Of a stretch of 64,000 nucleotides of DNA, positions 25,940 to 64,000 are shown piece after piece. The translations under genes and the position numbers were made by a program. The notes below the pieces were generated by a model. That model had not been told where the DNA came from, searched no databases, and was given only the letters and a program-made list of their open reading frames with translations. Origin of the DNA: Sweltsa coloradensis (Eukaryota > Arthropoda > Insecta > Plecoptera > Chloroperlidae); the NCBI GenBank assembly GCA_024449915.1, contig JAMZAV010002000.1:1-64000 (forward strand). Reading direction: 5' to 3'. Each line of letters begins with the position of its first letter. Positions within the stretch are counted from its first letter, which is position 1.

Positions 25940-26125
25940 GTATTATTTAATGCAATTCAGAAATTAAAAAAGTCCGCCCCAACCGGGATTCGAACCACGG
26001 GTCTCCCGCATTCCAGGCGAGCGTCTTAACCACTAGACCATCAGGACGGGTTAATTTTTGTAATTTCTGAATTGTAGTAAATAATAACAATTACACCTAC
26101 GGGAGTGTTTCCCGACTAACCAAAT
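25940..26125 (-). mobile_element. tRNA-like element flanked by inverted repeats (family S2), copy 1
   Basis: The tRNA-like block on the minus strand (25975-26050: TGGTCTAGTGGTTAAGACGC as A box, GGTTCGAATCCC as B box) lies between 'gcaattcagaaatta' and 'taatttctgaattgtag', i.e. inverted copies. A body 'acaattacacctacgggagtg' follows at 26088. Relatives lie at 58454 and 58770. Confidence 0.7.
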
Positions 26126-33117: not shown

Positions 33118-33540
<423 letters not shown>

Positions 33541-33621: not shown

Positions 33622-34519
33622 TTATTGGATGTATTTCATACAAACTCTGTTAAAACCGGAGCTAACATGTTGTACGGACTTACGTCAAGTACTTCCATGT
33701 GTACCTATTACATACATTATTACTTTTGTCTTAACTCTAACTAAAATAAGTCATTTATAAATTCTAATATTGTTTGTAGATGATGTTTTCTTTCTGCTGT
33801 GTACGGTCGTGGCCGATTTCTCGTCGCCATCCTAGCATTTGCTCTTCGGACTATGGGAAACCACGAAAACCATGTCAGGATGGAAGCTGTCTCGAAATCT
33901 CGAAGTATCATTCTTAGTTTAGAAATTTACGAACTATTCTACATGTGTTGAGTATTACTGCCTTTTGAGTCTCGATGTATACATTGGGTTGAAGATCTAG
34001 TTGTTTAATGCTTTCATGTAGCTTCTTCGGTATGATGCCGTTGGCTGATATAATGAATGGGATTGTATTTACCTTTTTCTGTTTCCACATCTTCTTGATC
34101 TCAATTGCAAGTTCACTATACTTGTCAATTTTTTTCTTCCACGTGGTCTCGACGTTATGGCACATTGGGATAGCAACGTCGATAAGGGTAGTTTCTTGTT
34201 TCTTCTTGTCAATTATTATTAAATCCGGTCTGTTGTGATGTATCGTTTGGTCTGTTATAACTGTGTGGTCGTAATATAATTTGTAATCTTTACTATCTAG
34301 TACTTTCTCTGGTTTGTATTTGTAGTAAGGTGTGTGCGTGTCAATGAGGTTGTACTTGATTGCTAGTTTTTGATGAATAATGTTAGCTACTTGGTTATGT
34401 CTGTAGAGGTAATCTGTTTGACATAGTGACTTGCACCCGGATATGATGTGTTCGATTGTTTCACCCCTTGCACTACATTTTCTACATTGATCGTTTACTG
34501 TCGCATCTTGTATTATGTA

Positions 34520-34530
<11 letters not shown>
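33622..34530 (-). mobile_element. Dong/R4-like LINE, 3' fragment, copy 1
   Basis: A minus-strand fragment of an RLE-type non-LTR retrotransposon holding the C-terminal endonuclease and 3' UTR. It is bounded on both sides by (ATT)n. It is nearly the same sequence as 48289-49217. Dong of Bombyx is known for insertion in TAA repeats, which fits this context. Confidence 0.85.
33914..34519 (-). CDS. C-terminal restriction-like endonuclease domain of a Dong/R4-type LINE (partial)
   Basis: The frame is open for about 201 codons from the truncation point (34519) to the stop at 33914; the first methionine is only at 34165, so the start is missing. In order: a zinc knuckle C-x2-C-x7-H-x4-C at the fragment's N-terminus, then the RLE core R-P-D followed 14 residues later by a second acidic D in 'T-L-I-D-V-A', then the family-typical 'IPFIISANGIIPKKL' and 'VILNTCRIVRKFLN' ending. 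These features place it in the R4/Dong group. There is no RT domain, so it cannot act alone. Its twin at 48.6-49.2 kb has a frameshift. Confidence 0.85.
   Translation of the reverse strand, partial: YIIQDATVNDQCRKCSARGETIEHIISGCKSLCQTDYLYRHNQVANIIHQKLAIKYNLIDTHTPYYKYKPEKVLDSKDYKLYYDHTVITDQTIHHNRPDLIIIDKKKQETTLIDVAIPMCHNVETTWKKKIDKYSELAIEIKKMWKQKKVNTIPFIISANGIIPKKLHESIKQLDLQPNVYIETQKAVILNTCRIVRKFLN

Positions 34531-34604
<74 letters not shown>
34531..34604 (+). repeat. (ATT)n between Dong-like copy 1 and LINE A3
   Basis: It separates the 5' end of the minus-strand Dong fragment from the 5' end of the plus-strand LINE A3. Confidence 0.95.
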
Positions 34605-34605
<1 letters not shown>

Positions 34606-34617
34606 TATTATATTATA

Positions 34618-36912
34618 TTGACCTAGATGTCAAAACAGCGGTATATACAACAAAGATTAGCGATCACTATATGATAGTTGCATCCACAGGAATTGACCTT
34701 GTTCATATAAATGCAATAAACGAACCAGTTGCGAATAAATGTATTAACGAAGCTAAATTAGTGGAAGTGTTAAAACGCATGAAATGGGATCATTTATTAT
34801 CAGCCAAGAAGTGTATTCCCTTATACGAATCAATCCAGAGCAATTTTAAAATAGCCTACGATGTGGCTTCAAATTTTGAAGAGTCGAAAGTTAAAAGAAG
34901 AGTGAATAAAGTGTGGATGACGAAAGAGTTATTAAAATCAGTAAAGGAGAGAGATCGCGCTTTTCAAAGGTGGAAAAAATGTCCGCAATTCAGTGTATTT
35001 AAAAATGAATATAGGAGAGATTATAATAGGTTAAGAAATAGAACAAATAAAAATATAATCGATGGTAAACGACATTACTATGTACATGCATTAGAACAGG
35101 GTAAAGACTGCAGAAAAGCAACGTGGCAAAATATAAATGAAATAATGGGTCGGAAAAGGAAAGATACAGTTGAGGAAGTTATAAATAAATTTTTAGGTAG
35201 ACATGATACAATTCCAAACATTGCTAATAATTTTGCAAATACCTTTGTAGATGAAATTGAAAATATTGTTCACATTTGCGACATTAAGTGTGTAGATAAC
35301 AATATGAGAGATAATGCATACGAGCAACAATTACAGTCGATATACGTGCCTCCTATTTCAACGACCGGAGTCAAAGAAATAATACTTAAAATGAATAATA
35401 ATAAAAAGGCAGGTATTGACGGAATTAGAGTTAAGGATTTGCAAAATATAGTTGATGAGATCAGTCCAGTTATTGCCCTATTTATTAACTTATCCTTGAA
35501 GGAGGGTATTATTCCAGAAACATTGAAAACATCTGTTGTCAGGCCAATATTCAAAAAGGGCGACCATTTGAAATATGTCAATTATAGGCCAATTGCCATT
35601 ATGTGTAGCATTGAAAAAATACTTGAAAGATACGTGGCAAATTGCTTAATAGATTACATGACGAAATTTAAAATAATAAACGAACAACAATATGGATTTC
35701 TAAGAGGAAAAAGTACAGTTGACCTTTTGGCATCCTTTTCTGACCTAGTTAATACTAAGCTAGACGAAAATTTTAACATCTTATGTATGTTCATCGATTA
35801 TAAAAAAGCATTTGACACCCTTGATTTTAATAAGCTGCTAGATGCGTTGGAAAGTATTGGGGTTAGAGGTACATTGTTAAATTGGTTTAAAAATTATTTA
35901 TCGAGCAGAAAGTTAATTGTAAGAATAGGCGAAGTGTATAGTGAAGCAAAGTCATGTAGCAGTGGCGTACCACAAGGCTCTATTTTAGGACCTCAACTTT
36001 ACTTAATATATGTAAATATTATGGTTAAGTATATTATTAAGTGCATTGCTTTTTGCTACGCTGATGACTTTGCTTTAGTGTCTATCCATAAAAACGTAAA
36101 AATTGCAGAAAGATACTTGCAAAATGATTTTCTAAATTTACTAAGGTGGAACCATGACGTAAGACTAATCGTAAATATTGAAAAAACAAAGATTGTGCAC
36201 ATTTCTATGCCGCTAAACGCGGGTCGAAATACTAATATCAATGTTATTGCCCACAATTTTGAATGCTTACATCTGAACGCGGGTAAAATTGATGGATTGT
36301 TCGTGTGATACATCAATTGCAACTGTTTACAGCCATCCGTATTTGGGGTTGGAGATTGATAATAACTTTAGTTGGAATATACAAGCTGAGAAAATATGTA
36401 AACGCTTAAGATCATGCGCTTACCAATTATATGCAGTTAAAAGTATTTTACCATTTAAATATGTAAATATGGTTTATATAGCCCTTGCAGAGTCGGTTAT
36501 TTCTTACGGTCTGTTAATTTGGGGAAATGCTTCGTTATCACAGCTAAATAGCATAATCTCTATTCAAAATAAAATAATGAAGATGATCACTTTTGAAAAT
36601 AATTTAAGCACTTTAGAATGTTATAGACTACAAAACGTTTTACCTTTACAAAAATTATTCACTTATAAATTAGTTTTGAAACATTTTTTCGTTAATACTC
36701 ACAAAAATTGTATAAACCACACTACTTCTACTCGCTCCAAATCTTCGGAAGTTTACCAGTTGCCACGGGTTGCAAATAAGTATGGTAAAAGAACACTTAG
36801 CTACACTATACCTTTCTTTTTTAATAGTATTCCAAAGAACATCCGAGATTTAGAGACTATTTATGAAATCAAAAGAGAGCTAAAGGCATTTTTATTACGA
36901 AATATGCAGTGA
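34618..36912 (+). pseudogene. LINE ORF2: end of endonuclease, reverse transcriptase, C-terminal region (family A)
   Basis: It starts within the last APE-endonuclease motif (S-D-H-Y at about 34657). The RT domain follows: Y-R-P-I near 35590, Y-G-F-L-R-G near 35700, the F-I-D-Y-K-K-A-F-D block near 35800, V-P-Q-G-S-I near 35970 and the catalytic Y-A-D-D near 36060. All key RT residues are present. A frameshift near 36290-36308 separates the RT from the C-terminal segment (36289-36912), whose last 111 residues equal those of copy A2. The residues before 34618 in the open frame are translated microsatellite. Retrotransposition is not possible from this copy because the endonuclease is missing. 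Confidence 0.9.
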
Positions 36913-48288: not shown

Positions 48289-49217
48289 TTATTGGATGTA
48301 TATCATACAAACTCGGTTAAAACCGGAGCTAACATGTTGTACGGACTTACGTCAAGTACTTCCATGTGTACCTATTACATGCATTATTACTTTGTCTTAA
48401 CTCTAACTAAAATAAGTCATTTATAAATTGTAATATTGTTTGTAAATGATGTTTTCATTCTGCTGTGTACGGTCGTGGCCGATTTCTCGTCGCCATCCTA
48501 GCATTTGCTCTTCGGACTATGGGAAACCACGAAAACCATGTCAGGATGGAAGCTGTCTCGAAATCTCGAAGTATCATTCTTAGTTTAGAAATTTACGAAC
48601 TATTCTACACGTGTTGAGTATTACTGCCTTTTGAGTCTCGATGTATACATTGGGTTGAAGATCTAGTTGTTTAATGCTTTCATGTAGCTTCTTCGGTATG
48701 ATGCCGTTGGCTGATATAATGAATGGGATTGTATTTACCTTTTTCTGTTTCCACATCTTCTTGATCTCAATTGCAAGTTCACTATACTTGTCAATTTTTT
48801 TCTTCCACGTGGTCTCGACGTTATGGCACATTGGGATAGCAACGTCGATAAGGGTAAATTCTTGTTTCTTCTTGTCAATTATTATTAAATCCGGTCTGTT
48901 GTGATGTATCGTTTGGTCTGTTATAACTGTGCGGTCGTAATATAATTTGTAATCTTTACTATCTAGTACTTTCTCTGGTTTGTATTTGTAGTAAGGTGTG
49001 TGTGTGTGTCAATGAGGTTGTACTTGATTGCTAGTTTTTGATGAATAATGTTAGCTACTTGGTTATGTCTGTAGAGGTAATCTGTTTGACATAGTAACTT
49101 GCACCCGGATATGATGTGTTCGATTGTTTCACCCCTTGCACTACATTTTCTACATTAATCGTTTACTGTCGCATCTCGTATTATGTATTTTTTATAATTG
49201 TTCGTCGCTTATCGTCG
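48289..49217 (-). mobile_element. Dong/R4-like LINE, 3' fragment, copy 2
   Basis: Nearly the same as 33622-34530 (a few substitutions per 100 bases at most), bounded by (ATT)n on both sides. It extends about 20 bases further at its 5' end than copy 1. Confidence 0.85.
48580..49195 (-). pseudogene. C-terminal restriction-like endonuclease domain, Dong/R4-type, frameshifted
   Basis: Same domain as at 33914-34519: zinc knuckle, R-P-D...D core, identical last 83 residues. A two-base expansion of a GT run (about 48996-49010) shifts the frame between the zinc knuckle and the nuclease core. The last 251 bases (48580-48831) remain open. Confidence 0.8.

Positions 49218-49293
<76 letters not shown>
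49218..49293 (+). repeat. (ATT)n between Dong-like copy 2 and LINE B
   Basis: About 25 units. The junction into LINE B reads through 'atatattatatatta'. Confidence 0.95.
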
Positions 49294-49298
<5 letters not shown>

Positions 49299-49309
49299 TA
49301 TATATTAGA

Positions 49310-51866
49310 GGCGCAATCAACGCCTCTAGAAATGAAAATAAACTTTGTCCAAGAACTTGAATCTGTGTTAATAAGTAAATTTAAAAATCCAAATGTTATA
49401 ATTATGGGGGACATGAACATTGATTTACTTGACGAGCGTGATCAATGCGTTCATTCTTATGAGAACTGTTTGGCGAGTTTGGGTTTTTTAAAATGCATAA
49501 ATGGAGTAACGAGAGAAGAAGCAATTCGAGATATGTGGTCAAAAACGTGTATTGATCATATTTTTGCGCGGGGGAAATTTGATTATGCTAAGTCGGCCAT
49601 TTTTAGGTGTAAAGTAAGCGATCATTACATGGTCGTGTCATCTTTGGTCTTCAAAAACACCAATCACAGTAATTTAGTAAACAAACCTCATGTTTCATTA
49701 GACGAGAGGAAAGTGTTTACTGCTTTGAAACGCGTGAATTGGGCAGATTTAATGGAAATTAATGATTGCAATAAGCTCTACGACTCTGTACGGGCTACTA
49801 TACATAACATACATGAGAACTCGTATTTTGTTGCAACCGGTCGCAAGAGGAAACGAGTAAACAAGGAGTGGATGACTGATAACCTTGTTGATATGGTTCG
49901 ACATAGAGACAGGTTGTTCCGTAAGTGGAGGAATGCTAGAGTAACTAACCCTTTGAGGCAGACTTATGAAACTGAATATAAACATTACCGCAATGAGGTA
50001 GTGAAGGAAATTTATAAAGTGAAACGTGATTATTATAAAAATAAATTTGAAGTACATAAAGGTGATGCTAAACAAACTTGGCAGATAATTAATGAAGTAA
50101 TAGGGAAATCAAAGCGTAACTCAGTTGACATGGTGATTAACAAATACTTACGTAATAAATATAGTGAGGAAGAAGTTGCTAATAGATTTGTTGATACCTT
50201 TGTTGATGAGATTAATATGATTCAACATAATTGCTCTATTGTAACTTCTAAGCTTGTGCCTCCTTCACCTCAGAGTCAATCTATGTACCTAGGGAAAGTA
50301 AGTGTAGCAACTGTGCTAAAAATTATCCGTAAATTAAATGTAACCAAACAACCTGGAATTGATGGGATTAGAGTGACCGACTTGCAATACACGGCTGAGG
50401 ATATTAGTCCCGTAATTGCCAAAATAATAAACCTGTCTTTAGAAAAGGGAGAAATACCTGATTTATTGAAAGTTTCTATTGTAAGACCGGTTTATAAAAA
50501 AGGCAGCCATATGGACTTTAGTAATTACAGGCCAATTGCCATTTTATCTGTTATTGAAAAAATAATGGAACGTGTAGTAGCTGACGCTCTATGCAACTAT
50601 TTAGATAAATTTAAAATTATTACTAATAATCAGTTTGGATTTCAAAAAGGTAAGAGCACAACCGATCTTCTAGTGAAATTTGCGAACCTGGTTAATAACA
50701 AATTAAATGACAATATGCACATTGCGGCCATGTTTGTGGACTTAAGCAAGGCATTTGATACATTAAATCACGCTAAACTTTTAATATGTCTTGAGCGAAT
50801 TGGTATTCGTGGCCCAATTTTAAATTGGTTTAAAAATTACTTAACAAATAGGAGAATAAGAGTTAAGGTTGGTGATTTTTTAAGCCACGAACGTGATGTT
50901 ATTTCAGGAGTTCCTCAGGGTTCTATTTTGGGTCCAATTCTATTTCTGGTCTACGTAAATGATTTGGTTAAATGTTTTAAATATTGCTATGTATTTTTTT
51001 ATGCCGATGACATTTTGATTGTTTCAGTTCATAAAAACTTTGAAATTGCACAGTTGTATTTACAAATAGATTTTATTAACCTACTTAAAGAGATTCATGA
51101 TAGAGTTTTAGTAATTAATGCAAATAAAACAAAAATAATTCATTTGTGTGCACCTCAAAACAGAGATTGTCTCCGAGAGGTCAGGGTGATCACTCATTCC
51201 AATGAATGTTTGCATAATCAAGTAGATCCACAGACGTGTGCATGTAGTGATTTACTCGAGAATGTTGACTCGCATAATTATTTGGGATTGGTGATTGATA
51301 AACATTTCAGCTGGGCACTTCATATTGATTCCATCTGTAAGCGCCTAAGAGCCTGCCTCCGGCAATGTTTTTTTCTTAAATACGTTTTACCATTTTCTGT
51401 GTTGCGTAATGTATATATCGCTCTTGCAGAATCTATTATATCTTATGGTCTACTAGCGTGGGGGTATTCCACTGACTGCCACTTAAATAAAATTCGAGTA
51501 CTACAAAATAAGCTTTTACGCGAAATAAGACCTCGCAATTGTCAAACTCTGTCGACTCGGGAGACATACCTATTTTGCAACCTTCTGCCAGTTGACGGCC
51601 TTTTCACGTACCAACTGTTAATAAAATATTACTTTAAAAATGATTATAGAATTCTTGTGCAGAAATACAAACGGACACGTAGTCAGGAAAAACAAAAATT
51701 TGTAGTTCCTAGAAGTAATAATAAATACGGTCAAAGGCGCCTAGAGTGTTTAGTCCCCGAGTCTTTTAATAAATTACCCAATCAATTATTAAACTTAACA
51801 AAAATTTCCGAGGTCAAGCAACAAATAAAAAGACATTTGTTGTCTCAATTGAGTGCTCTTACCTAA
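49310..51866 (+). CDS. LINE ORF2, 5'-truncated: partial endonuclease, complete reverse transcriptase
   Basis: An uninterrupted frame of about 850 codons. The start is missing; the frame is open upstream only through microsatellite. Endonuclease remnants: I-M-G-D-M-N (near 49405), I-D-H-I-F (near 49552), S-D-H-Y (near 49618). RT: N-Y-R-P-I (near 50523), F-G-F-Q-K-G (near 50634), F-V-D-L-S-K-A-F-D (near 50734), V-P-Q-G-S-I-L-G-P (near 50909), F-Y-A-D-D (near 50998). The post-RT region ends at the TAA at 51864-51866. All RT catalytic residues are present and there are no stops, so this copy is young. Without the 5' part and ORF1 it is probably immobile by itself. Confidence 0.93.
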
Positions 51867-52100
51867 ATCTGTTTTGCTCATACCTTGTTTTTGTAATCAT
51901 CTTTTAGCTATATTTCTGTTAGGTTTCTGAAATGCCTATGAAACTTAAAAACCTTGGCGTTGTGTTGTGTCTCATTTTATTTTAAGTAACGGTCATTCTA
52001 CTTCGATTTGTTTATTTAATGATTGTGATTTGTTAATGTTTTTTTTCATAATGATTCCTTCCTCTACGGTTGTTTTTGTTTTAGTTTATTTGATGTTATT

Positions 52101-52132
52101 CCACAGATGAGCCCGCATAATGGGCTTTGTGG
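52101..52132 (+). other. Conserved LINE 3' UTR stem-loop (family B)
   Basis: Outer stem CCACA/TGTGG, bulge GATG, inner stem AGCCC/GGGCT, loop GCATAAT, single 3' bulge T. Confidence 0.75.
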
Positions 52133-52209
52133 GTTTCATTGAGATAAAACTATGTAATATGTGTTTTGTGAAATAAAATGAATTGAATTAAAAAAAAAAA
52201 AAAATATAT

Positions 52210-52333
<124 letters not shown>

Positions 52334-52409
52334 CACTCGTTCAGTTGACGGCGGAGAGGACGGACGTGTTTCGAGGACTGCTGCTGCTCGAGGATATCGT
52401 GAGTTTGAT

Positions 52410-53252
52410 ATGAGTAACTGCGCGGAGTGTTTTCTAGAGTTGCCGAGCGACGGTGACTTTGTTGGTTGCACGGGTTGTGATGGTGGCTACCATTACGATT
52501 GTTCCGGTGTTCGAAAATCCACAAATAAATCTAAATCGCAATCCCAAAAACAACAGTGGCGATGTGTTAAGTGTCGCGAGGTAAAGAATGCGGGGGACGT
52601 CAATGTTGTAAGCAGTGATGGAAGCGTAGCTGCCACGTTAAAAAGCATGGACGCCAAACTTCATGAAATTCTCGACAAACTTAACAAAAGCGAAGATAGA
52701 GTTAAAGAACTTGAGCGTGAGTCAGCGGAAAGAAGTGTTCTAGTATCAACGCTGATAAGTCGGGTTAATTTTCTTGAACAATACAGCCGTAATAAAAATA
52801 TCGAGGTGTTAAACGTTGAAGAAACTAGCGGCGAAAGCGTTGAAGACATAGTTATACAGGTCGCTAACAAATTAAATGTGAATTTAGTTAGTAGTGACAT
52901 TGAAGCTGCTCACCGGTTGCCTAACAAACGGAACGCGGATTACCCACCCAAGATATTAGTGCAATTTGCGTCTAGGAAAAAGCGCGAAGAAGTACTTGAA
53001 GCCAGGCGCAAGAAAAGTGTAAAGAGCTCGCAAATATTAGGGGACAACTGCACGCAGAATACGAATATCTACATAGGTGAGAATCTATCTCCCTACTACC
53101 GTAGTCTGCTTTGGGAAGCGAAGCAGCGAGCCAAGGACGCCGGATTCAAGTTCGTGTGGTGGAAGAGAGACCAGATATTTGTGCGCAAAGACGAAAACAC
53201 CCGTCAAGTCATTAAAGTAAAGGACGACAACGACCTACAACTCATTGCATGA
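52410..53252 (+). CDS. LINE ORF1: PHD-type zinc finger, coiled coil, FP-like C-terminal domain
   Basis: 280 codons from ATG. Residues 4-55 form a C4HC3 PHD finger (C4, C7, C20, C23, H28, C31, C52, C55, with W50 two residues before C52). Residues ~70-115 are a coiled coil ('LDKLNKSEDRVKELERE'). The rest resembles the baculovirus-FP/LINE ORF1 C-terminal domain: 'EAAHRLPNK', 'KILVQFASRKKRE', 'IYIGENLSPYYR', 'DQIFVRKDE'. Such ORF1 proteins bind the element RNA and chaperone nucleic acids in a ribonucleoprotein; the PHD finger may bind chromatin. The frame is intact. It ends at TGA 53250-53252, eight bases before the likely ORF2 ATG. Confidence 0.92.
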   Translation: MSNCAECFLELPSDGDFVGCTGCDGGYHYDCSGVRKSTNKSKSQSQKQQWRCVKCREVKNAGDVNVVSSDGSVAATLKSMDAKLHEILDKLNKSEDRVKELERESAERSVLVSTLISRVNFLEQYSRNKNIEVLNVEETSGESVEDIVIQVANKLNVNLVSSDIEAAHRLPNKRNADYPPKILVQFASRKKREEVLEARRKKSVKSSQILGDNCTQNTNIYIGENLSPYYRSLLWEAKQRAKDAGFKFVWWKRDQIFVRKDENTRQVIKVKDDNDLQLIA

Positions 53253-53259
53253 AAACGGA

Positions 53260-54066
53260 ATGCGAAATAATACCGACTGGCTAACGGATACGGGACAAGA
53301 AAGTGAAGAAGTGGTGGTAAGTGATTTGGACTGCTGGGTTGAGAGAAATCACGGTCATATTTTGTTACACCTCAATATAAGGTCATTAAAAAAACACTGG
53401 GATGAACTTCAAGTTGTACTTAGAAAACATATAGGGCAATTTGATGTGTTAGTACTGAGTGAAATTTCCATATCTGAAGATGAAGTGTCATTTGAGTTGG
53501 AGGGTTATACCAGTATTTATAGTGTTCGGAAAGGAAGGAGAGGCGGAGGTTTGTTATTGTTTGTGAAATCTAGTATTAACGTTGAGCAGTGCGTGAATAA
53601 GTTCACGTGTTGTGAGTGTATTTACTGTAGGCTCACCTTCCCTGATAACAGAGTAGTGGATGTGCTGGCTATATACCGGCCACCAAATAATAGCAAGGTC
53701 GGTTTTATTGACGAGTTGGAGTCGTTCGTGGATGACAATCACAACAGCAATGTTGTCATATTGGGTGACGTAAATATTAACCTGTTAGATGAAAGTAATG
53801 AATATGTACAAAGGTACGCTAATGTGTTGAGTTCTACTGGTTTTAGAAGTTACATTAATAAACCAACACGGGAGGAGATTGTTGGAGGATATTTAAAGAC
53901 ATCTTGTATTGATCACATATTTGTTAGATGTAATGCTAAGGTAACCTCATCTGCAATATGCACAACAAAAATATCTGACCATTACTTGACATTGGTTTCA
54001 TTTCAGTTTAGTGGGGAGGCGAGATCACTAAAAAATGAACATTTTGAAAGGGATGTTATAAAATAA
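53260..54066 (+). CDS. LINE ORF2, first part: APE-type endonuclease (ends at a frameshift)
   Basis: I chose the ATG at 53260; a TTG in the same frame lies at 53245, overlapping ORF1. Endonuclease motifs in order: L-N-I-R-S-L (near 53370), L-S-E (near 53455), G-R-R-G-G-G (near 53535), Y-R-P-P (near 53676), I-L-G-D-V-N (near 53758), I-D-H-I-F (near 53908), S-D-H-Y (near 53978). All expected catalytic positions are present, so the domain looks functional. The frame stops at TAA 54064-54066 because of a one-base change in the A-rich stretch around 54058-54066; the RT continues in the next frame. Confidence 0.92.
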   Translation: MRNNTDWLTDTGQESEEVVVSDLDCWVERNHGHILLHLNIRSLKKHWDELQVVLRKHIGQFDVLVLSEISISEDEVSFELEGYTSIYSVRKGRRGGGLLLFVKSSINVEQCVNKFTCCECIYCRLTFPDNRVVDVLAIYRPPNNSKVGFIDELESFVDDNHNSNVVILGDVNINLLDESNEYVQRYANVLSSTGFRSYINKPTREEIVGGYLKTSCIDHIFVRCNAKVTSSAICTTKISDHYLTLVSFQFSGEARSLKNEHFERDVIK

Positions 54067-56194
54067 TGAAAAGTATCTGCTAAATAGCTTGCATTCCGTT
54101 CAATGGGCTGATTTATTAAATGTTGATAGTTGTGTGCGATTATACGATGTTATCTGCTCAAAGTTTGAATCGTGTTACAGACATGCCGCGTTTACGAAAT
54201 CTCAAACAAACAAGAGAATTCGGAAGACGTGGATGTCTGATGACCTGGAAAAATTAATTATCCAGAGAGATTCATTATTTAAAAAATGGAAGCAAGCTGA
54301 TGTGTTTAACCCTTCAAAAACAAGATTTAGGCATGATTATGTTATATTCAGGAACAAAGTAAGTAGACTCATTTTAAATGCAAAGCGAAAGTACTACAAG
54401 AGCCAATTAAAACAAAATCAGAATAATATTAAAGAGACGTGGCAAACCATAAACGAAATTCTAGGAAAGAAGAAGAAAAGTTCGGTCGATGAGGTAGTAA
54501 ATAACCATCTAGGCAAAAAACACACTCAGAAGGAAATTGTTAATAAATTTGCTGATTCTTTTACAAACGAGGTTGAAAATTTGAAACATTCTTGTGAAAT
54601 TAAAACTTCAAAAAATATGCACAAACCTTCACAGATGCAATCTATGTATATGCCACGTGTAACCGTTGAAAGGGTTGCGACTATAATTGCAGGAATGAAC
54701 TCTGAAAAATCACCTGGTATTGACGGTATTCGTGTAGTAGATTTAAAAAATATATGCGACCTTATATCTCCGGTAATTGCTCACTTCATTAATTTGTCTA
54801 TAAAAGAAGGCGTTGTGCCTGATAAGCTAAAAATATCAGTAGTGAGACCCATATACAAAAAAGGGGATCACACACTTTTTGAAAATTATAGACCAATTGC
54901 GTTGTTACCCGTCATAGAAAAAATAATGGAACGATGTATTGCAGATCAATTAACAACATATCTTGAAAAGTTTAATATCATTAATAAAGAGCAATATGGG
55001 TTTCAAAAAGGTAAAAGCACTTCCGATCTCCTGGTGCGCTTTTCAAATTTGATAAATTCAAAATTAAATGACAACTTCCACGTGTTAGCTATGTTTATAG
55101 ATTTTAAGAAAGCGTTTGATACGTTGAACCATGAGAAACTTTTGGAATGTTTTGAAAATATTGGAATACGTGGTAATATGTTGAACTGGTTTAGAAGCTA
55201 TCTTAAAAGTAGGAAGATTGTGGTTAAAGTAGGGGATTCTTACAGCTACGAGAAAGAATCTAATACTGGTGTAGCGCAAGGCTCAATTTTGGGACCTATT
55301 TCTTATTTGATCTACGTAAACGAAATTTGTAAATATATTAAGCACTGCGTTATACTAATGTTCGCCGACGACGCTGCTCTAATCTCTGTTTATAAGATTT
55401 TAAAAGTTGCAGAACAAAACCTAAACGCAGATTTCAGGAGCTTGGCGTGTTATGCTCACGATTGTGAATTAACCCTGAATTCAATTAAAACTAAAGTTGT
55501 ACACATTTGCTCGCCTTTTAATGATTCACGTTCGGATAGCATTCACATAATAAGTCATTCCAATGAGTGTTTGCATACTAGTAATAGTGTGGTGGTATGT
55601 GAATGTGTTGAGGAGATCGAGTGTGTTGATACTCACGCGTATCTAGGGTTGATAGTAGATAAATATTTTAGTTGGAAGCCTCACATTGATTCAGTTTGCA
55701 AAAAGCTTAGAAGTTGCGCATTTCAATTATATAAATTAAAATATATTTTGCCTTATACTACCTTGCGAACTGTTTATATCTCCTTGGCAGAATCAATAAT
55801 TTCTTATGGTCTATTAGCATGGGGCAATGCGAGTAACATTCACTTAACTGAAAATAAAAACTCAATCGTTTTCCATACACATGACTTGTACACATATTGC
55901 TTTTTATTGCCTGTTTCTTTACTGTATCGATTTCGCCTTTTGGTTAAATATTATTTTAGTGACATCTACAAAAATTCACGCAATGAGCATCAATATAATA
56001 CAAGATTTGTGTTAAAAACTAACTTTGATATTCCAGAATACGTCAATAAGTACGGCCAGAGAACTCTTGAGTATTCCTTTCCGCATACGTTTAATCAATT
56101 ACCAGAGGACATGAAAGATTTGCAATCGTATAGTGAGGTTAAAAATAAACTTAAAATTTACTTACTTTGTTCCATAGATAGGCCTATTGATTAA
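54065..56194 (+). pseudogene. LINE ORF2, second part: reverse transcriptase and C-terminus
   Basis: This frame aligns from 54065 onward with families A and B ('QWADLL' against 'NWADLM'). RT motifs: N-Y-R-P-I (near 54885), Y-G-F-Q-K-G (near 54992), F-I-D-F-K-K-A-F-D (near 55096), V-A-Q-G-S-I (near 55270), F-A-D-D (near 55361). The usual V-P-Q-G is V-A-Q-G here. About ten residues after 'WGNAS' are missing compared with A and B, an in-frame deletion near 55850. The stop is at 56192-56194. Marked pseudogene only because of the single frameshift from the endonuclease part. Confidence 0.9.
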
Positions 56195-58453: not shown

Positions 58454-58660
58454 TATAATGCAACTACAATTCAGAGCTTAAAATGTACCCGTCCCGATGG
58501 TCTAGTTGCCGACCCCTGGTCTAGTGGTTAAGACGCCTGTCTGGAATGCGGGAGATCCGTGGTTCGATTCCCGGTTGGAGCGGACTTTGTTAATTTCTGA
58601 ATTGTAGTAAATAATATCAATTACACCTACGGGAGTGTTTCCCGACTAAACAAATCGAGA
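58454..58660 (+). mobile_element. tRNA-like element (family S2), copy 2
   Basis: 'actacaattcaga' precedes and 'tctgaattgtagt' follows a tRNA-like block (A box TGGTCTAGTGGTTAAGACGC near 58520, B box GGTTCGATTCCC near 58560). Its 5' part carries a duplicated 'gatggtctag.tg' piece. The body 'ttacacctacgggagtgtttcccgac' matches 26091-26116. Confidence 0.7.
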
Positions 58661-58769: not shown

Positions 58770-58920
58770 TGTATAATGCAACTACAATTCAGAGCTTAAA
58801 ATGTACCCGTCCTGATGGTCTAGTGGTTAAGACGCCTGTCTGGAATGCGGGAGATCCGTGGTTCGATTCCCGGTTGGGGCGGACTTTTTTAATTTCTGAA
58901 TTGTAGTAAATAAATAACAC
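58770..58920 (+). mobile_element. tRNA-like element (family S2), copy 3
   Basis: A near-repeat of copy 2, including the shared upstream 'ataatgcaactacaattcag' word, so the two are a tandem duplication about 315 bp apart. It lacks the 'ttacacctacggg' body. Confidence 0.7.
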
Positions 58921-59996: not shown

Positions 59997-60150
59997 CATG
60001 ATATACTTATAACCAACAGAATATACTTATGAACACCAGAGATGTATGATATATTTATTACCACCAGAATATACTTGTAAACACCAGAAAGGTATGATAT
60101 ACTTATAACCAACAGAATATACTTACGAACACCAGAGGTACGATATACTA
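59997..60150. repeat. ~48-bp minisatellite, segment 2
   Basis: Same units as 57420-57840, lying between the 2.15-kb element and the minus-strand LINE. A short (TA)n follows at 60148-60175. Confidence 0.88.
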
Positions 60151-60179
60151 ATATATATATAATATATATATATATACAT

Positions 60180-61499
60180 AATGTAGAAGACTTAACAGCT
60201 CTCTTGAAAGCAGACATGGCAAGACCTTGTGTTTCTTCGGACAGGGAGTAGTTCCAAATTTTGGCAGTTCGGCAGTAGAACCCACTTATGTACGCGCTGG
60301 TTCGGGCAAATGGTGGCGTGATGGACTGGGCCTGGTGACGTCTTGAATCGGGAAGATTCCAAGACACCCGATGGAATGGGTCAAGGTCTACACAGCCAGT
60401 CAACATCTTTTTGAAGAACATAACTTCCACTTGCTTCATGAGTTGTTCAATGGTGGAAAGGCGACATTGACCACGACGTGTAGAGGCACTTGGTTCTTTG
60501 TAACCCATACTATGTCTGGTGGCACCATTTTGAATTCTTTCCAACTTGCTCATGTTGTCCTTTGTTGTTGGATGCCACGCTGGTAGGCCATGAGTGATAA
60601 TTGGCCTAACCAGCGCTAAGTATGCGGTGCGAAGGGTTCTTGGCTTGCCACCCTTTAGAGAGCGCGATACAAATCCTAAAGTTGTAGACGCTCTGTTACG
60701 CACATACTCACAATGTAGATTCCACCGCAGATCACAAGTAACAATTATTCCAAGTAGTTTGACTTTTTGGCAACACGGTATTATATCTCCATTTATACTA
60801 TACACAATGTTTATGTGTCCGGTTCTTCATCGCGTGATTCGAAGTAACTGTGACTTGCTAACATTAAGTGACATTTGGTTGTTTTGACATCAAACTTGGA
60901 TATTGTTTAGGTCATTTTGTAGAGCCTTTGCATCTTCTGAAGTAGATATGTTTCTGTACAGAGTTGTATCGTCAGCATATTGGAGAATACTTGACGTTAC
61001 AACATCAGGTAAGTCTATGATAAAGATTGTAAAAAACAAAGGACCAAGTACCGATCCCTGCGGAATTCCAGAAGTAACGTCAATTAATGATGATGAGGCT
61101 CCATCATGCACTACACGCTGAGATCTGCCCTTAAAAAAACGATTTAATCCAATTAAGAAGCTCACTTTGAATTCCATAATTATGTAGCTTATGTAGAAGT
61201 CTCTCGTGTGGCACACTATCAAACGCCTTACTCCAGTCCAACGCTATGCAGTCAATTTGCCTTGTTTTTCCTTGGTCAAGCATATTCTGCCAGTCATCAA
61301 TAGCCTTTGTCAGCATAGTTGTGCATGATCGACGAGGTAAAAATCCATGCTGGTTAGGCGGTATCAGACTGTTCACTTGTATGTGCGTATAAATGACTGA
61401 AGTAATTAGACGCTCCGTTACCTTGCAAACCGTACTGGTAAGTGATATTGGCCTGTAGTTAGATACATCTGATCTATTCTTTGATTTGTAGACAGGCAC
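60180..61499 (-). pseudogene. 2A-LINE: reverse transcriptase and post-RT domain
   Basis: Motifs in order on the minus strand: N-Y-R-P-I (near 61455), N-Q-H-G-F-L (near 61345), L-D-W-S-K-A-F-D-S-V (near 61225), I-P-Q-G-S-V-L-G-P (near 61065), Q-Y-A-D-D (near 60975), then the post-RT region with 'LGIIVTCDLRW' and 'PIITHGLPAWHP'. A frameshift lies at about 61140 and in-frame TGA codons at about 60890 and 60832. Residues beyond 60180 in the open frame are translated (TA)n and minisatellite. RT catalytic residues remain visible. Confidence 0.9.
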
Positions 61500-61544
61500 A
61501 ACGTTAGCTACTTTCCAATCGTTAGGAACAACTCCGGACTCGTT

Positions 61545-62990
61545 TCACAAGTTAAACAGTGCAGTGAGGGATGGAGCAAGCAAAGAAGCACACTGGTGAA
61601 GAATTGTAGTAGGGATTCCATCAGGACCACTAGCCGCACCAGGACGAGTGTTGAGAAGTACTTGCCTCACCTCGTTGACTGAGAAAGAAAGTTTTGTAAG
61701 AGGCTTTTGAACTGATGGATTTCCTAGAAATAATTTCGTACAGTTTGTCGCTAATGGAGTAAAGTTTTCTTGGAACTTTGAATTAAATGCATTGGCAATT
61801 TCTTTTGCATCAGTTAAAACCTTACCATTTGCTGAGAAGTGAGAAGGAGCTGCACTGCCACTCTTAGAACGGATAAATTTCCAGAGTCCTTTAGAATTGC
61901 TCCCTAAGTTCCAAACATGTTGTTGCTGAGCATTTTGTATTGTTGTTTTCACTTGATTAAGAAACTTTCTGTAAGAGTTCCATAAATCATCAGACTGGAT
62001 CCTCTTACATTTGATGAAGAGTTTGTCAAGCTTTTTAATCAATTTCAGAAGATCCGAAGTAATCCATGGTGCCCGGCATTGACTCTTCATTATTACTTTT
62101 GGAATTGCAACTTCAACACAATTCCTAAACACCGAACACCAATCTTTCCACATCAGATTAACGTCATGCTGTTGATTTAATATTGTAAGGCGCTCTACGA
62201 AAAGAGTACTAAGTAGCAGCCAGCCAGCCCTTTTACAGTTCCATACAGATTTGTTAATGTATTTGGTTCTAGGAACAGTGAATTTTATATTAGCCCATAC
62301 TGCCAAATGGTCACTCACACCTGGAATAACAATCGTGTCTTCAATAATATTTGGGTTGTTGCACAGCAATAGGTCAATGATAGATCGCGAAGTATCCGTT
62401 ACTCGAGTAGCTTCGGTGACTGATTGCGTGAAAGATAGCTCGTGGAACGCAGATAAATAAAGATTGGCAGTAGCATCGTTGGGAATAGGAGCTACAGAAT
62501 CCCAAGTTATATTCAAATTAAAATCTCCACACAAAACTATTGCGGTATACTTGGTTACTAACTTGTCAACACGGCATAAAGATTCGATTAGTTCCTTGTC
62601 TAAATCTGCGGTCGAATTAGGCGGCCTGTAAGCAGACCCAAGTAACAGTTTTTTATTTCCGCATGTTACCTCCACCCATATGATCTCTGCATTAAGTTAG
62701 ATAGTTCAGGTACATGCACCGGCTTAAGCTCAGATTTTGCTGCTATGAGAACTCCATCTCCTGGTCGGGCATCTCGGTCCTTCCGAAATAACATGTAGGA
62801 TGTGGCTAATATTTCCGAATCTCGTACACTTGCATCGAGCCACGTTTCACAGACGACAATAACTGATGGGGTGAGCGCTTCAATCCAGGTATGAATTATG
62901 GGATAGCGTTTCGAATGTTTAAGACTACGAGCGTTAAAACATAGTAATTGTATACCAGAATTATTGGAGCCAGAATCGCTATTGGTGCTT
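61545..62990 (-). pseudogene. 2A-LINE: APE-type endonuclease and linker to RT
   Basis: The N-terminal half (about 62990-62695) reads L-L-C-F-N-A-R-S-L, C-E-T-W-L-D and R-P-G-D-G-V. After a one-base frameshift near 62690, the frame from 62675 gives Y-R-P-P, L-C-G-D-F-N and V-S-D-H, i.e. all main endonuclease motifs. The linker follows, with 'PWITSDL' and the pre-RT 'PDGIPTTIL'. The frame is stopped by TGA at 61545-61547 just before the RT block. Confidence 0.9.
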
Positions 62991-62994
62991 TGGT

Positions 62995-63222
62995 TAAGTT
63001 GAAGCGCATCTCCAGCAATGAAAAATTAATCATTAAACTGTGGCACTGTGCACTCCCAGCACGTCCAAGTCTGTGCAACATAAACTACGCGCCTGTGCAA
63101 GGATGGCAGTATTTTGACGCATGTATTGTGGAACGGTCTCGTACATTCAGATCACATTGTAAAAAGTTGGTTTTTACGCCCCTCAGTTTTACAATTATGG
63201 CAACGCTTGTTCTGCCCGTTGA
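62995..63222 (-). pseudogene. 2A-LINE: PHD-like zinc finger region
   Basis: Immediately after the second 2A motif the same frame has C-x2-C, then a TGA where a cysteine codon (TGC/TGT) would complete the next C-x2-C (followed by S-E-C), then H-x3-C and later W-T-C-W-E-C, a PHD-type last pair. A TAA follows, and the frame runs on toward the endonuclease. It is a PHD finger broken by nonsense changes. Confidence 0.65.
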
Positions 63223-63223
63223 T

Positions 63224-63283
63224 TGGACCGGGATTTACTTCTACATCTCCAAACAAAGTAAGAAGGAGGCAAATTATATCCAT
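63224..63283 (-). CDS. N-terminal segment with 2A motif no. 2
   Basis: In the frame continuous with the zinc finger, ATG (63283) starts M-D-I-I-C-L-L-L-T-L-F, then G-D-V-E-V-N-P-G-P (63224-63250). The consensus is complete again. It repeats the hydrophobic-leader + 2A arrangement of motif 1, 87 bases downstream of it. Confidence 0.85.
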
Positions 63284-63336
63284 GTGCGACACAGGTGGTC
63301 TGCATGAGTCACTAGCAAGCGAATAACACACTGCGA

Positions 63337-63426
63337 AGGACCAGGGTTTAGCTCCACATCCCCAGAAAGAGCAATAAGCAACAGGAAAATGCTGCTGAAT
63401 GTTAAAGTCAAAATACTCTTGGCCAT
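63337..63426 (-). CDS. N-terminal segment with 2A motif no. 1
   Basis: From ATG (63426) a short hydrophobic, signal-like stretch (M-A-K-S then 'ILTLTFSSIFLLLIALS') leads to G-D-V-E-L-N-P-G-P (63337-63363). This fits the 2A consensus D-(V/I)-E-x-N-P-G-P, at which ribosomes skip the Gly-Pro bond and release the upstream peptide. In 2A-bearing LINEs the motif separates an N-terminal leader from the endonuclease/RT polyprotein. The hydrophobic leader suggests a 'signal 2A' that could also direct targeting. A frameshift follows just after NPGP. Confidence 0.85.
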
Positions 63427-63867
63427 TATGCAGGTTCGTCGCCTTCTTGTCCGTTGTTTACGTTGTCCCAAACATCTAGTCGATGCAACCGGTCTTATTT
63501 TTCCTAGAAAAATATTTCCACACAGACTTCCGGAGGAAACACAGCATCTTATTGAAACCAACTCACTTTCCAAAGGGATACCATAGACCTGTCTACATTT
63601 AGTTGGAATAAGTCGTGTTACCAGTTGCAATTTGCATCCATAATTGATCATTCTAAAAGTCAGAAAAGAAACAATATAAACAAGCCACCAAAAGTACGAA
63701 ACCTTTCTTGCCCATTTCTGTCTTCTTCAGCTAGGCCTCGCCCTAGAAATTTGGCATCTGCGATAACTAACAGCCATAGTAAATGTTCTGATTATTGCCA
63801 ATCTTACCTCTTGCCGAATTAGGATCTTCCAATAGGTACTCAAAATGATAGGAATGTCAACATATCA

Positions 63868-64000
63868 CACATAACTTATAAACACCAGAGAGGTACGATA
63901 TACTTAAAACCACCAGAATATACTTATGAACACCAGAGAGGTATAAACTTATATCCACCAGAATATAGTTATGAACACCAGAAAGGTATGATATACTTAA
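63868..64000. repeat. ~48-bp minisatellite, segment 3
   Basis: Same units as segments 1 and 2, continuing past the right edge of the window. Confidence 0.88.

What the first reader, a model, noticed from the sequence alone, without database searches (positions are those of the whole stretch)
63224..63426. Two tandem 2A (NPGP) translational-recoding motifs at the start of a LINE polyprotein
The minus strand encodes hydrophobic leader + GDVELNPGP and, 87 bases later, a second hydrophobic leader + GDVEVNPGP, followed by a PHD-like finger, APE endonuclease and RT. Single 2A motifs are established in some APE-type LINEs (sea urchin, molluscs, trypanosomes). A duplicated leader-2A module in one element is unusual. 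Both copies keep the full D-V-E-x-N-P-G-P core although the rest of the element has stops. The arrangement would release two short hydrophobic peptides before the replicase.
Basis: partly seen in the sequence, partly recalled or inferred. Interest (0 to 1): 0.85.

Follow-up and report, generated by a model that had tools for sequence, protein, structure and literature searches.

The report
Tandem 2A ribosome-skipping motifs in LINE
A family of jumping genes in this genome carries two ribosome-skipping signals, one after the other in a single reading frame, so one reading frame would yield three separate proteins; the copy in the window is a broken member of that family.

Summary
The two 2A motifs are real (window minus strand, 63337-63363 GDVELNPGP and 63224-63250 GDVEVNPGP). 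The window's own 1.45-Gb genome explains it: a 13-nt deletion seen in no other copy compared; the family keeps both modules in one frame. Of the 39 other copies scored and fetched, 27 have both DxExNPGP cores, 23 have spacing divisible by three (20 exactly 126 nt, 42 codons), and 18 have both cores in one frame with no stop between. Two of the 20 copies whose frames were listed are open throughout (1204 codons from ATG). Two skips would give 146, 42 and 1016 residues; the first is a basic protein, not a short hydrophobic peptide. Outside relatives mostly have one 2A at this place (1 of 63 listed 2A-bearing relatives has two), as do 3 of 4 other LINE loci sampled in this genome. Multi-2A LINE ORFs occur elsewhere too; P0123 and P0127 share three conserved cores. 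New variant of a known kind. Skipping itself is untested.

The parts
60150..63873 (-). LINE copy carrying the tandem 2A; lacks about 280 nt of the family's 5' UTR and the family's 3' UTR
   Evidence: flanks; compared with other copies
63874..63904 (-). putative target-site duplication, 5' side
   Evidence: about 29 nt shared with 60121-60149; only these two of the 8 minus-strand satellite units found read GTATATCGTAC
60121..60149 (-). putative target-site duplication, 3' side
63337..63699 (-). N-terminal domain running into 2A-1 (2A-1 frame)
   Evidence: HMM of relatives' N-terminus + 2A, E 2.2e-14; without leader and 2A E 2.8e-4
63364..63426 (-). hydrophobic leader 1, in-frame ATG at 63426
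63337..63363 (-). 2A-1 core GDVELNPGP
63284..63336 (-). linker between the modules; 13 nt shorter here than in L045 (junction near 63324/63325), which puts the modules in different frames
   Evidence: alignment to L045; 113 nt between cores here, 122-129 nt in the 39 other copies, 126 nt in 20 of them
63274..63276 (-). stop codon of the 2A-1 frame in this copy
63251..63283 (-). hydrophobic leader 2, ATG at 63283
63224..63250 (-). 2A-2 core GDVEVNPGP
63029..63223 (-). PHD-like zinc finger, interrupted by a stop
   Evidence: HMM of relatives, E 2.1e-10 and 1.6e-9 for the two pieces; no Pfam match in these pieces (one search scanned the first piece only)
61545..63025 (-). APE-type endonuclease and following region, two frames
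   Evidence: Exo_endo_phos_2 E 3.5e-9 in 61545-62696; the piece 62666-63025 matches only weakly (E 0.043)
60182..61544 (-). reverse transcriptase and C-terminal part, with a frame change and stops
   Evidence: RVT_1 E 2.1e-17 and 8.6e-8

Best explanation
This is a decayed copy of a single-ORF LINE family (PHD-like finger, APE endonuclease, RT) whose ORF carries two consecutive leader-2A modules in one frame, 42 codons apart. SHOWN: both modules in one frame in many genomic copies; two copies with the whole ORF open; about 370 nt of 5' UTR before the ORF, so no room for a separate ORF1; fewer nonsynonymous than synonymous changes between subfamilies; a 13-nt deletion found only in the window copy. 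INFERRED: recent activity of the family; a ribosome skip of the Gly-Pro bond at each NPG/P, releasing a 146-residue basic protein (pI 11.7, net charge +25, with a hydrophobic, signal-anchor-like stretch), then a 42-residue peptide, then a 1016-residue PHD-EN-RT that starts with Pro. INFERRED FURTHER: the first product stands in for an ORF1 protein, and the second skip is a fail-safe that keeps the replicase from staying fused to membrane-directing leaders.
For: Own-genome search: 40 of 87 candidates scored, 39 besides the window. All 39 fetched and compared: core 1 intact in 30, core 2 in 34, both in 27; spacing a multiple of three in 23, exactly 126 nt in 20; both cores, one frame, no stop between in 18. 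L045 and L051 carry a 1230-codon stop-to-stop frame with both cores, 2 of the 20 copies whose frames were listed (same places). L045 against L040: dS 0.113, dN 0.017. The two cores differ at 7 of 27 nt but in 1 of 9 residues; chance of at most one residue change given 7 changes 0.001-0.002, so the duplication is old. A 5' boundary shared by 9 of 16 other copies compared puts the ORF start about 370 nt in. Product sizes and charge. Other in-frame multi-2A ORFs: P0123, P0127, P0128, P0126; the three cores of P0123/P0127 are identical at 25 of 27 residues against 37 of 99 in the spacers, Fisher p 1.5e-7.
Against: No translation data. 21 of 39 other copies do not show both cores in one open frame (indels, stops, changed residues); some of these are over 99% identical to L045, so part may be assembly indels (my inference, not checked). 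The nearest outside relatives with a complete N-terminus (P0002, P0003, P0004, P0006) have one 2A, and so do three other LINE loci in this genome within the 351 nt read, so two are not needed. The ORF1-substitute and fail-safe roles are untested. Among relatives the first product is not always basic: 24 of 53 have pI 9.5 or more, median net charge +4.
Confidence: 0.75

Rival explanations
1. Only one of the two 2As is active; the other is a tolerated relic, perhaps of 5' module exchange between LINE subfamilies.
For: Relatives manage with one 2A. 5' exchange does occur in this family: L040 differs from L045 at 3 of 441 sites up to the end of core 1 but at 129 of 3155 beyond, and is closer to L046 there (73 of 3153), with a breakpoint between nt 369 and 477.
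Against: Both cores are kept as DxExNPGP in 27 of 39 other copies, and the two cores differ from each other almost only at synonymous sites.
Confidence: 0.2
2. The leader-2A modules serve mainly as dual-targeting signals, as reported for sea urchin NLR proteins: unskipped product enters the secretory pathway, skipped product stays in the cytosol.
For: Leaders are hydrophobic; 45 of 53 relatives that start with M and have the 2A at residue 60-200 begin with a hydrophobic, signal-peptide-like stretch, against 2.6% of random EN-RT windows. Precedent: PMC4981915 (passages).
Against: The modules are internal in the intact ORF; N-terminal use of the second would need initiation at the ATG of leader 2, for which there is no evidence. 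No signal-peptide predictor was run.
Confidence: 0.2
3. Two-ORF arrangement: the 2A-1 frame ends at the stop overlapping the ATG of leader 2, and the replicase is made by termination-reinitiation.
For: In the window the stop at 63274-63276 begins 7 nt after the first base of the ATG at 63283; reinitiation is described for the SART1 LINE (PMC5972666, passage).
Against: The out-of-frame state goes with a 13-nt deletion seen only here; 18 of 39 other copies read through both.
Confidence: 0.02
4. Recent local duplication, private to this copy, or an assembly artefact.
For: Only the frame difference in this copy.
Against: Both cores are intact in 27 of 39 other copies, all on separate contigs (L061 and L062 share flanks, so they are one insertion counted twice); third positions of the two cores differ at 6 of 9.
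Confidence: 0.01

Closest known systems
APE-type non-LTR retrotransposons with one 2A (Odon et al. 2013; recalled, and cited in passages of PMC11512398 and PMC4981915; the paper itself is not held, and was not seen)
   Same: APE endonuclease and RT; DxExNPGP upstream of the replicase
   Different: two modules in one frame, with a 42-residue peptide between the skips; whether that paper notes elements with two is not known to me
P0123/P0127, P0128 and P0126 (database LINE-type ORFs, the last named Mytilus galloprovincialis)
   Same: two or three leader-2A modules in one ORF ahead of PHD and/or EN (and RT in P0123/P0127)
   Different: other branches of the EN-RT tree (quick method) and other spacings (47 to 150 residues); separate origin likely
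Multi-2A picornaviruses (Paavivirinae), PMC11512398 (passages)
   Same: several NPGP motifs in one polyprotein, spacer peptides of unknown role
   Different: RNA viruses; spacers about 50-150 residues
Sea urchin NLR 2A signal sequences, PMC4981915 (passages)
   Same: hydrophobic leader joined to DxExNPGP
   Different: cellular immune genes, 2A at or near the N-terminus

Membership tests
APE-type non-LTR retrotransposon (LINE) | APE-type endonuclease domain | tested here: met
   Exo_endo_phos_2 E 3.5e-9
APE-type non-LTR retrotransposon (LINE) | reverse transcriptase domain | tested here: met
   RVT_1 E 2.1e-17; groups with other EN-RT proteins
APE-type non-LTR retrotransposon (LINE) | dispersed copies | tested here: met
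   40 scored places on 40 contigs
APE-type non-LTR retrotransposon (LINE) | target-site duplication | tested here: inconclusive
   about 29-nt putative duplication in the window copy, but inside a satellite; other copies not examined for it
named LINE clade (CR1, L2 or other) | grouping with named reference elements | not tested
   no named reference element was in the tree
2A / StopGo element | D(V/I)ExNPGP core | tested here: met
   both cores
2A / StopGo element | suitable upstream leader | tested here: inconclusive
   hydrophobic leaders like those of relatives; the required context is only loosely defined
2A / StopGo element | location inside one open reading frame | tested here: met
   not both in one frame in the window copy, but so in 18 of 39 other copies
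2A / StopGo element | skipping of the Gly-Pro bond in translation | not testable with these tools
   needs a translation assay
NLR-type 2A signal sequence | 2A at the N-terminus | tested here: not met
   cores start at residues 139 and 181 of the intact ORF
NLR-type 2A signal sequence | secretion when unskipped | not testable with these tools
   needs a localisation assay

The most novel reading that the evidence does not exclude
A LINE with no ORF1 that makes three proteins from one ORF by two successive ribosome skips: a basic, membrane-associated 146-residue protein taking the place of ORF1p, a 42-residue hydrophobic-leader peptide, and the replicase; such arrays arose several times in LINEs, by exchange of 5' modules at the 2A boundary.
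Probability: 0.4. Interest if true: 0.75.

Novelty: new variant of a known kind. Interest (0 to 1): 0.6.

Why it matters
How single-ORF LINEs supply the functions of ORF1p, and why a retrotransposon keeps a 2A at all, are open questions (my view of the field). A family with intact copies and two in-frame 2As, and other LINE-type ORFs with two or three, makes them testable: the products, their ratio and their location can be measured with reporters. It also gives naturally paired 2A sequences for multi-protein expression.

Tried and rejected
Recent local duplication: rejected by the codon pattern of the two cores and by the genome copies. Chimera of two distant LINE lineages as the source of the frame change: not supported, since the N-terminal part (E 7.9e-4) and the finger (E 4.9e-16) both match P0007 best among the proteins held. 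Two-ORF reinitiation: rejected, because the frame difference goes with a deletion seen only in this copy. Insertion preference for the satellite: flanks of the other copies differ by eye. A first search with the two-2A region returned one protein at E <= 1 (P0001, single 2A) from 323 candidates. Viral contigs gave no relatives; genome contigs gave 7 loci at 22-28% identity, not useful. The EN-RT tree (quick method) puts the window in a set with P0002 and P0005 (support 82) and multi-2A rows on several branches; long branches make the place of P0123/P0127 unsure. A SAP-like stretch seen by eye between 2A and finger in P0007 was not listed by Pfam at E 0.01.

Literature: the listed titles (lists capped: 3 of 3, 30 of 36, 7 of 7, 20 of 34, 20 of 170, 20 of 43) show no paper on multiple 2As in LINEs. 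Only passages of four papers were seen: PMC4981915, PMC11512398, PMC5972666, and one reference-list passage of PMC12846837. The key paper on 2A in LINEs (Odon 2013) is not held, so I cannot say that tandem 2As in LINEs are unreported.

Full report
OBSERVATION. A search for the degenerate 2A core finds two matches in the window and none in 100 shuffles: GDVELNPGP at 63337-63363 and GDVEVNPGP at 63224-63250, minus strand. They are 113 nt apart, so in this copy they are in different frames. The 2A-1 frame (63277-63726) stops at 63274-63276, and the 2A-2 frame is open at 63155-63457. Downstream lie a broken PHD-like finger, an APE-type endonuclease and an RT, with further stops and frame changes.

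WHAT RELATIVES OUTSIDE THE GENOME SHOW. A protein joined from the LINE's frames found 4693 relatives at E <= 1e-20 among 7968 scored candidates (a capped set), of which the best 120 are listed; the best full-length ones are 41-45% identical. Of these 120, 63 have an NPGP, all within the first 200 residues, and one of the 63 (P0007) has two, the second without a hydrophobic leader. An HMM of relatives' N-terminus plus 2A matches the window's 2A-1 frame (E 2.2e-14); an HMM of 2A plus finger matches the 2A-2 frame (E 2.1e-10). So each of the two modules sits where relatives have their only one. The part before 2A-1 and the finger after 2A-2 both match P0007 best among the proteins held. In 45 of 53 relatives that start with M and have the 2A at residue 60-200, the first 35 residues hold a hydrophobic, signal-peptide-like stretch, against 2.6% of random EN-RT windows; 29 of 53 pass the same mark for the leader just before the 2A, against 1.0%.

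MULTI-2A ELSEWHERE. A query made of many 2A variants returned 26 proteins from 6616 candidates, 18 of them new. Fifteen of the 18 have two or more NPGP. Six of these have RT or EN domains in the table (P0123, P0125, P0126, P0127, P0128, P0134); P0135-P0137 carry virus-type replicase domains. P0123 and P0127 have three modules ahead of finger, EN and RT. P0128 has two, 47 residues apart, ahead of EN; its second core (GDVSLNPGP) departs from DxE. Between P0123 and P0127 the three cores are identical at 25 of 27 residues and the spacers at 37 of 99 (Fisher p 1.5e-7). The query was built to find such cases, so 15 of 18 is not a frequency. In P0122, P0125, P0130 and P0134 the stretches before the cores are not hydrophobic.

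THE DECISIVE TEST. The window lies in a 1,448,894,888-base assembly. Its 306-bp module region has 40 scored matches (87 candidates), 39 besides itself, 88-92% identical, mostly 314-319 nt long against 305-306. All 39 were fetched and aligned to L045. Core 1 is DxExNPGP in 30, core 2 in 34, both in 27; spacing is a multiple of three in 23 and exactly 126 nt in 20; both cores in one frame without a stop in 18. Results against: 21 of 39 fail at least one of these, 16 of them by spacing that is not a multiple of three; four copies (L043, L070, L071, L074) match L045 over part of its length only, and L061 and L062 share flanks and are one insertion counted twice. Several failing copies are over 99% identical to L045 with single-base indels, which may be assembly errors (inference, not checked). 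Of the 20 copies whose frames were listed, L045 and L051 are open for 1230 codons from stop to stop, including both 2As, EN and RT; from the first ATG of that frame this is 1204 codons followed by TGA in L045. One search lists the same two places with no stops. The window differs from L045 by a 13-nt gap in the linker; no other copy has that spacing (122-129 nt in the rest).

SELECTION AND HISTORY. L045 against L040: dS 0.113, dN 0.017. In copies whose N-terminal part is older, that part also changes less at nonsynonymous sites (L065: dS 0.151, dN 0.022; L046: 0.092, 0.034; window: 0.114, 0.048), so it is coding. The two cores differ at 7 of 27 nt with one residue change (L/V); chance 0.001-0.002. 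The third positions of the cores (6 of 9 differ) are far more diverged than the putative target-site duplication (2 mismatches in 29 plus a 2-nt gap; Fisher p 7e-4), so the duplication predates the insertion. L040 is a mosaic: nearly identical to L045 through 2A-1 (3 of 441) and diverged beyond (129 of 3155, p 6e-5), where it is closer to L046 (73 of 3153, but 24 of 437 before), with the breakpoint between nt 369 and 477; L039, L041 and L048 show the same pattern of differences to L045. Of four other LINE loci sampled in the same genome (351 nt each; 46-50% identical to P0002), three show one NPGP (L078, L079, L080) and one (L077) shows none in the stretch read; a second 2A outside the stretch is not excluded. 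Two modules are therefore probably a derived trait of the window's family (inference).

ANATOMY. Of 16 other copies compared with L050, nine share a 5' boundary at its position 318, which puts about 370 nt before the ATG: there is no room for an ORF1. The 3' UTR is about 245 nt. L045 and L051 lack part of this 5' UTR, and the window copy lacks more of it and the whole 3' UTR.

MECHANISM. Two skips would give 146 residues (pI 11.7, net charge +25), 42 residues (pI 4.2) and 1016 residues. That both 2As skip is inferred from the motif, the leaders and conservation. The ORF1-substitute and fail-safe roles are hypotheses; in relatives the first product is basic (pI 9.5 or more) in 24 of 53 only. 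Published work reports that 2A leaders can act as signal sequences in sea urchin NLR proteins (PMC4981915, passages), and that some 2As of multi-2A picornaviruses apparently terminate translation without detectable restart (PMC11512398, abstract passage), so activity cannot be assumed.

VERDICT. New variant of a known kind; interest 0.6.

Noticed in passing
window 63874-63904 and 60121-60149: The LINE is inserted in a 45-48 nt satellite; a variant shared only by the two flanking units (of 8 found on that strand) marks a putative target-site duplication of about 29 nt.
   Followed up: partly
L040, L039, L041, L048 (window's genome): Mosaic copies: the 5' part up to 2A-1 is nearly that of L045, the rest is another subfamily's; 5' module exchange with a breakpoint at the 2A region (nt 369-477 in L040).
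   Followed up: partly
P0007 and L077: A SAP-like stretch (by eye; not listed by Pfam at E 0.01 for P0007) lies upstream of the finger in two related LINE ORFs.
   Followed up: no
P0122, P0125, P0130, P0134: Proteins (two of them with RT) with three or four GD(V/I)ExNPGP motifs, mostly far apart and without hydrophobic leaders: another type of multi-2A polyprotein.
   Followed up: no
P0124 (named Amphimedon queenslandica), P0132: Proteins with three and two NPGP motifs whose listed Pfam domains are PF01048 (nucleoside phosphorylase) and PF21107/PF20209, not EN or RT.
   Followed up: no
window 60150 to about 60180: This copy ends at the ORF's end in a TA microsatellite, without the family's 3' UTR, unlike the usual 5'-only truncation of LINEs.
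   Followed up: no
window 25975-26047, 33373-33445, 58517-58574, 58809-58881: Four stretches pass the Rfam tRNA threshold; the two near 58.5-58.9 kb lie in similar surroundings and look like a tRNA-derived SINE (by eye).
   Followed up: no
window 34491-36909, 42.6-45.5 kb, 49098-56191: Several other LINE-like ORFs, some next to long ATT-type microsatellites.
   Followed up: no
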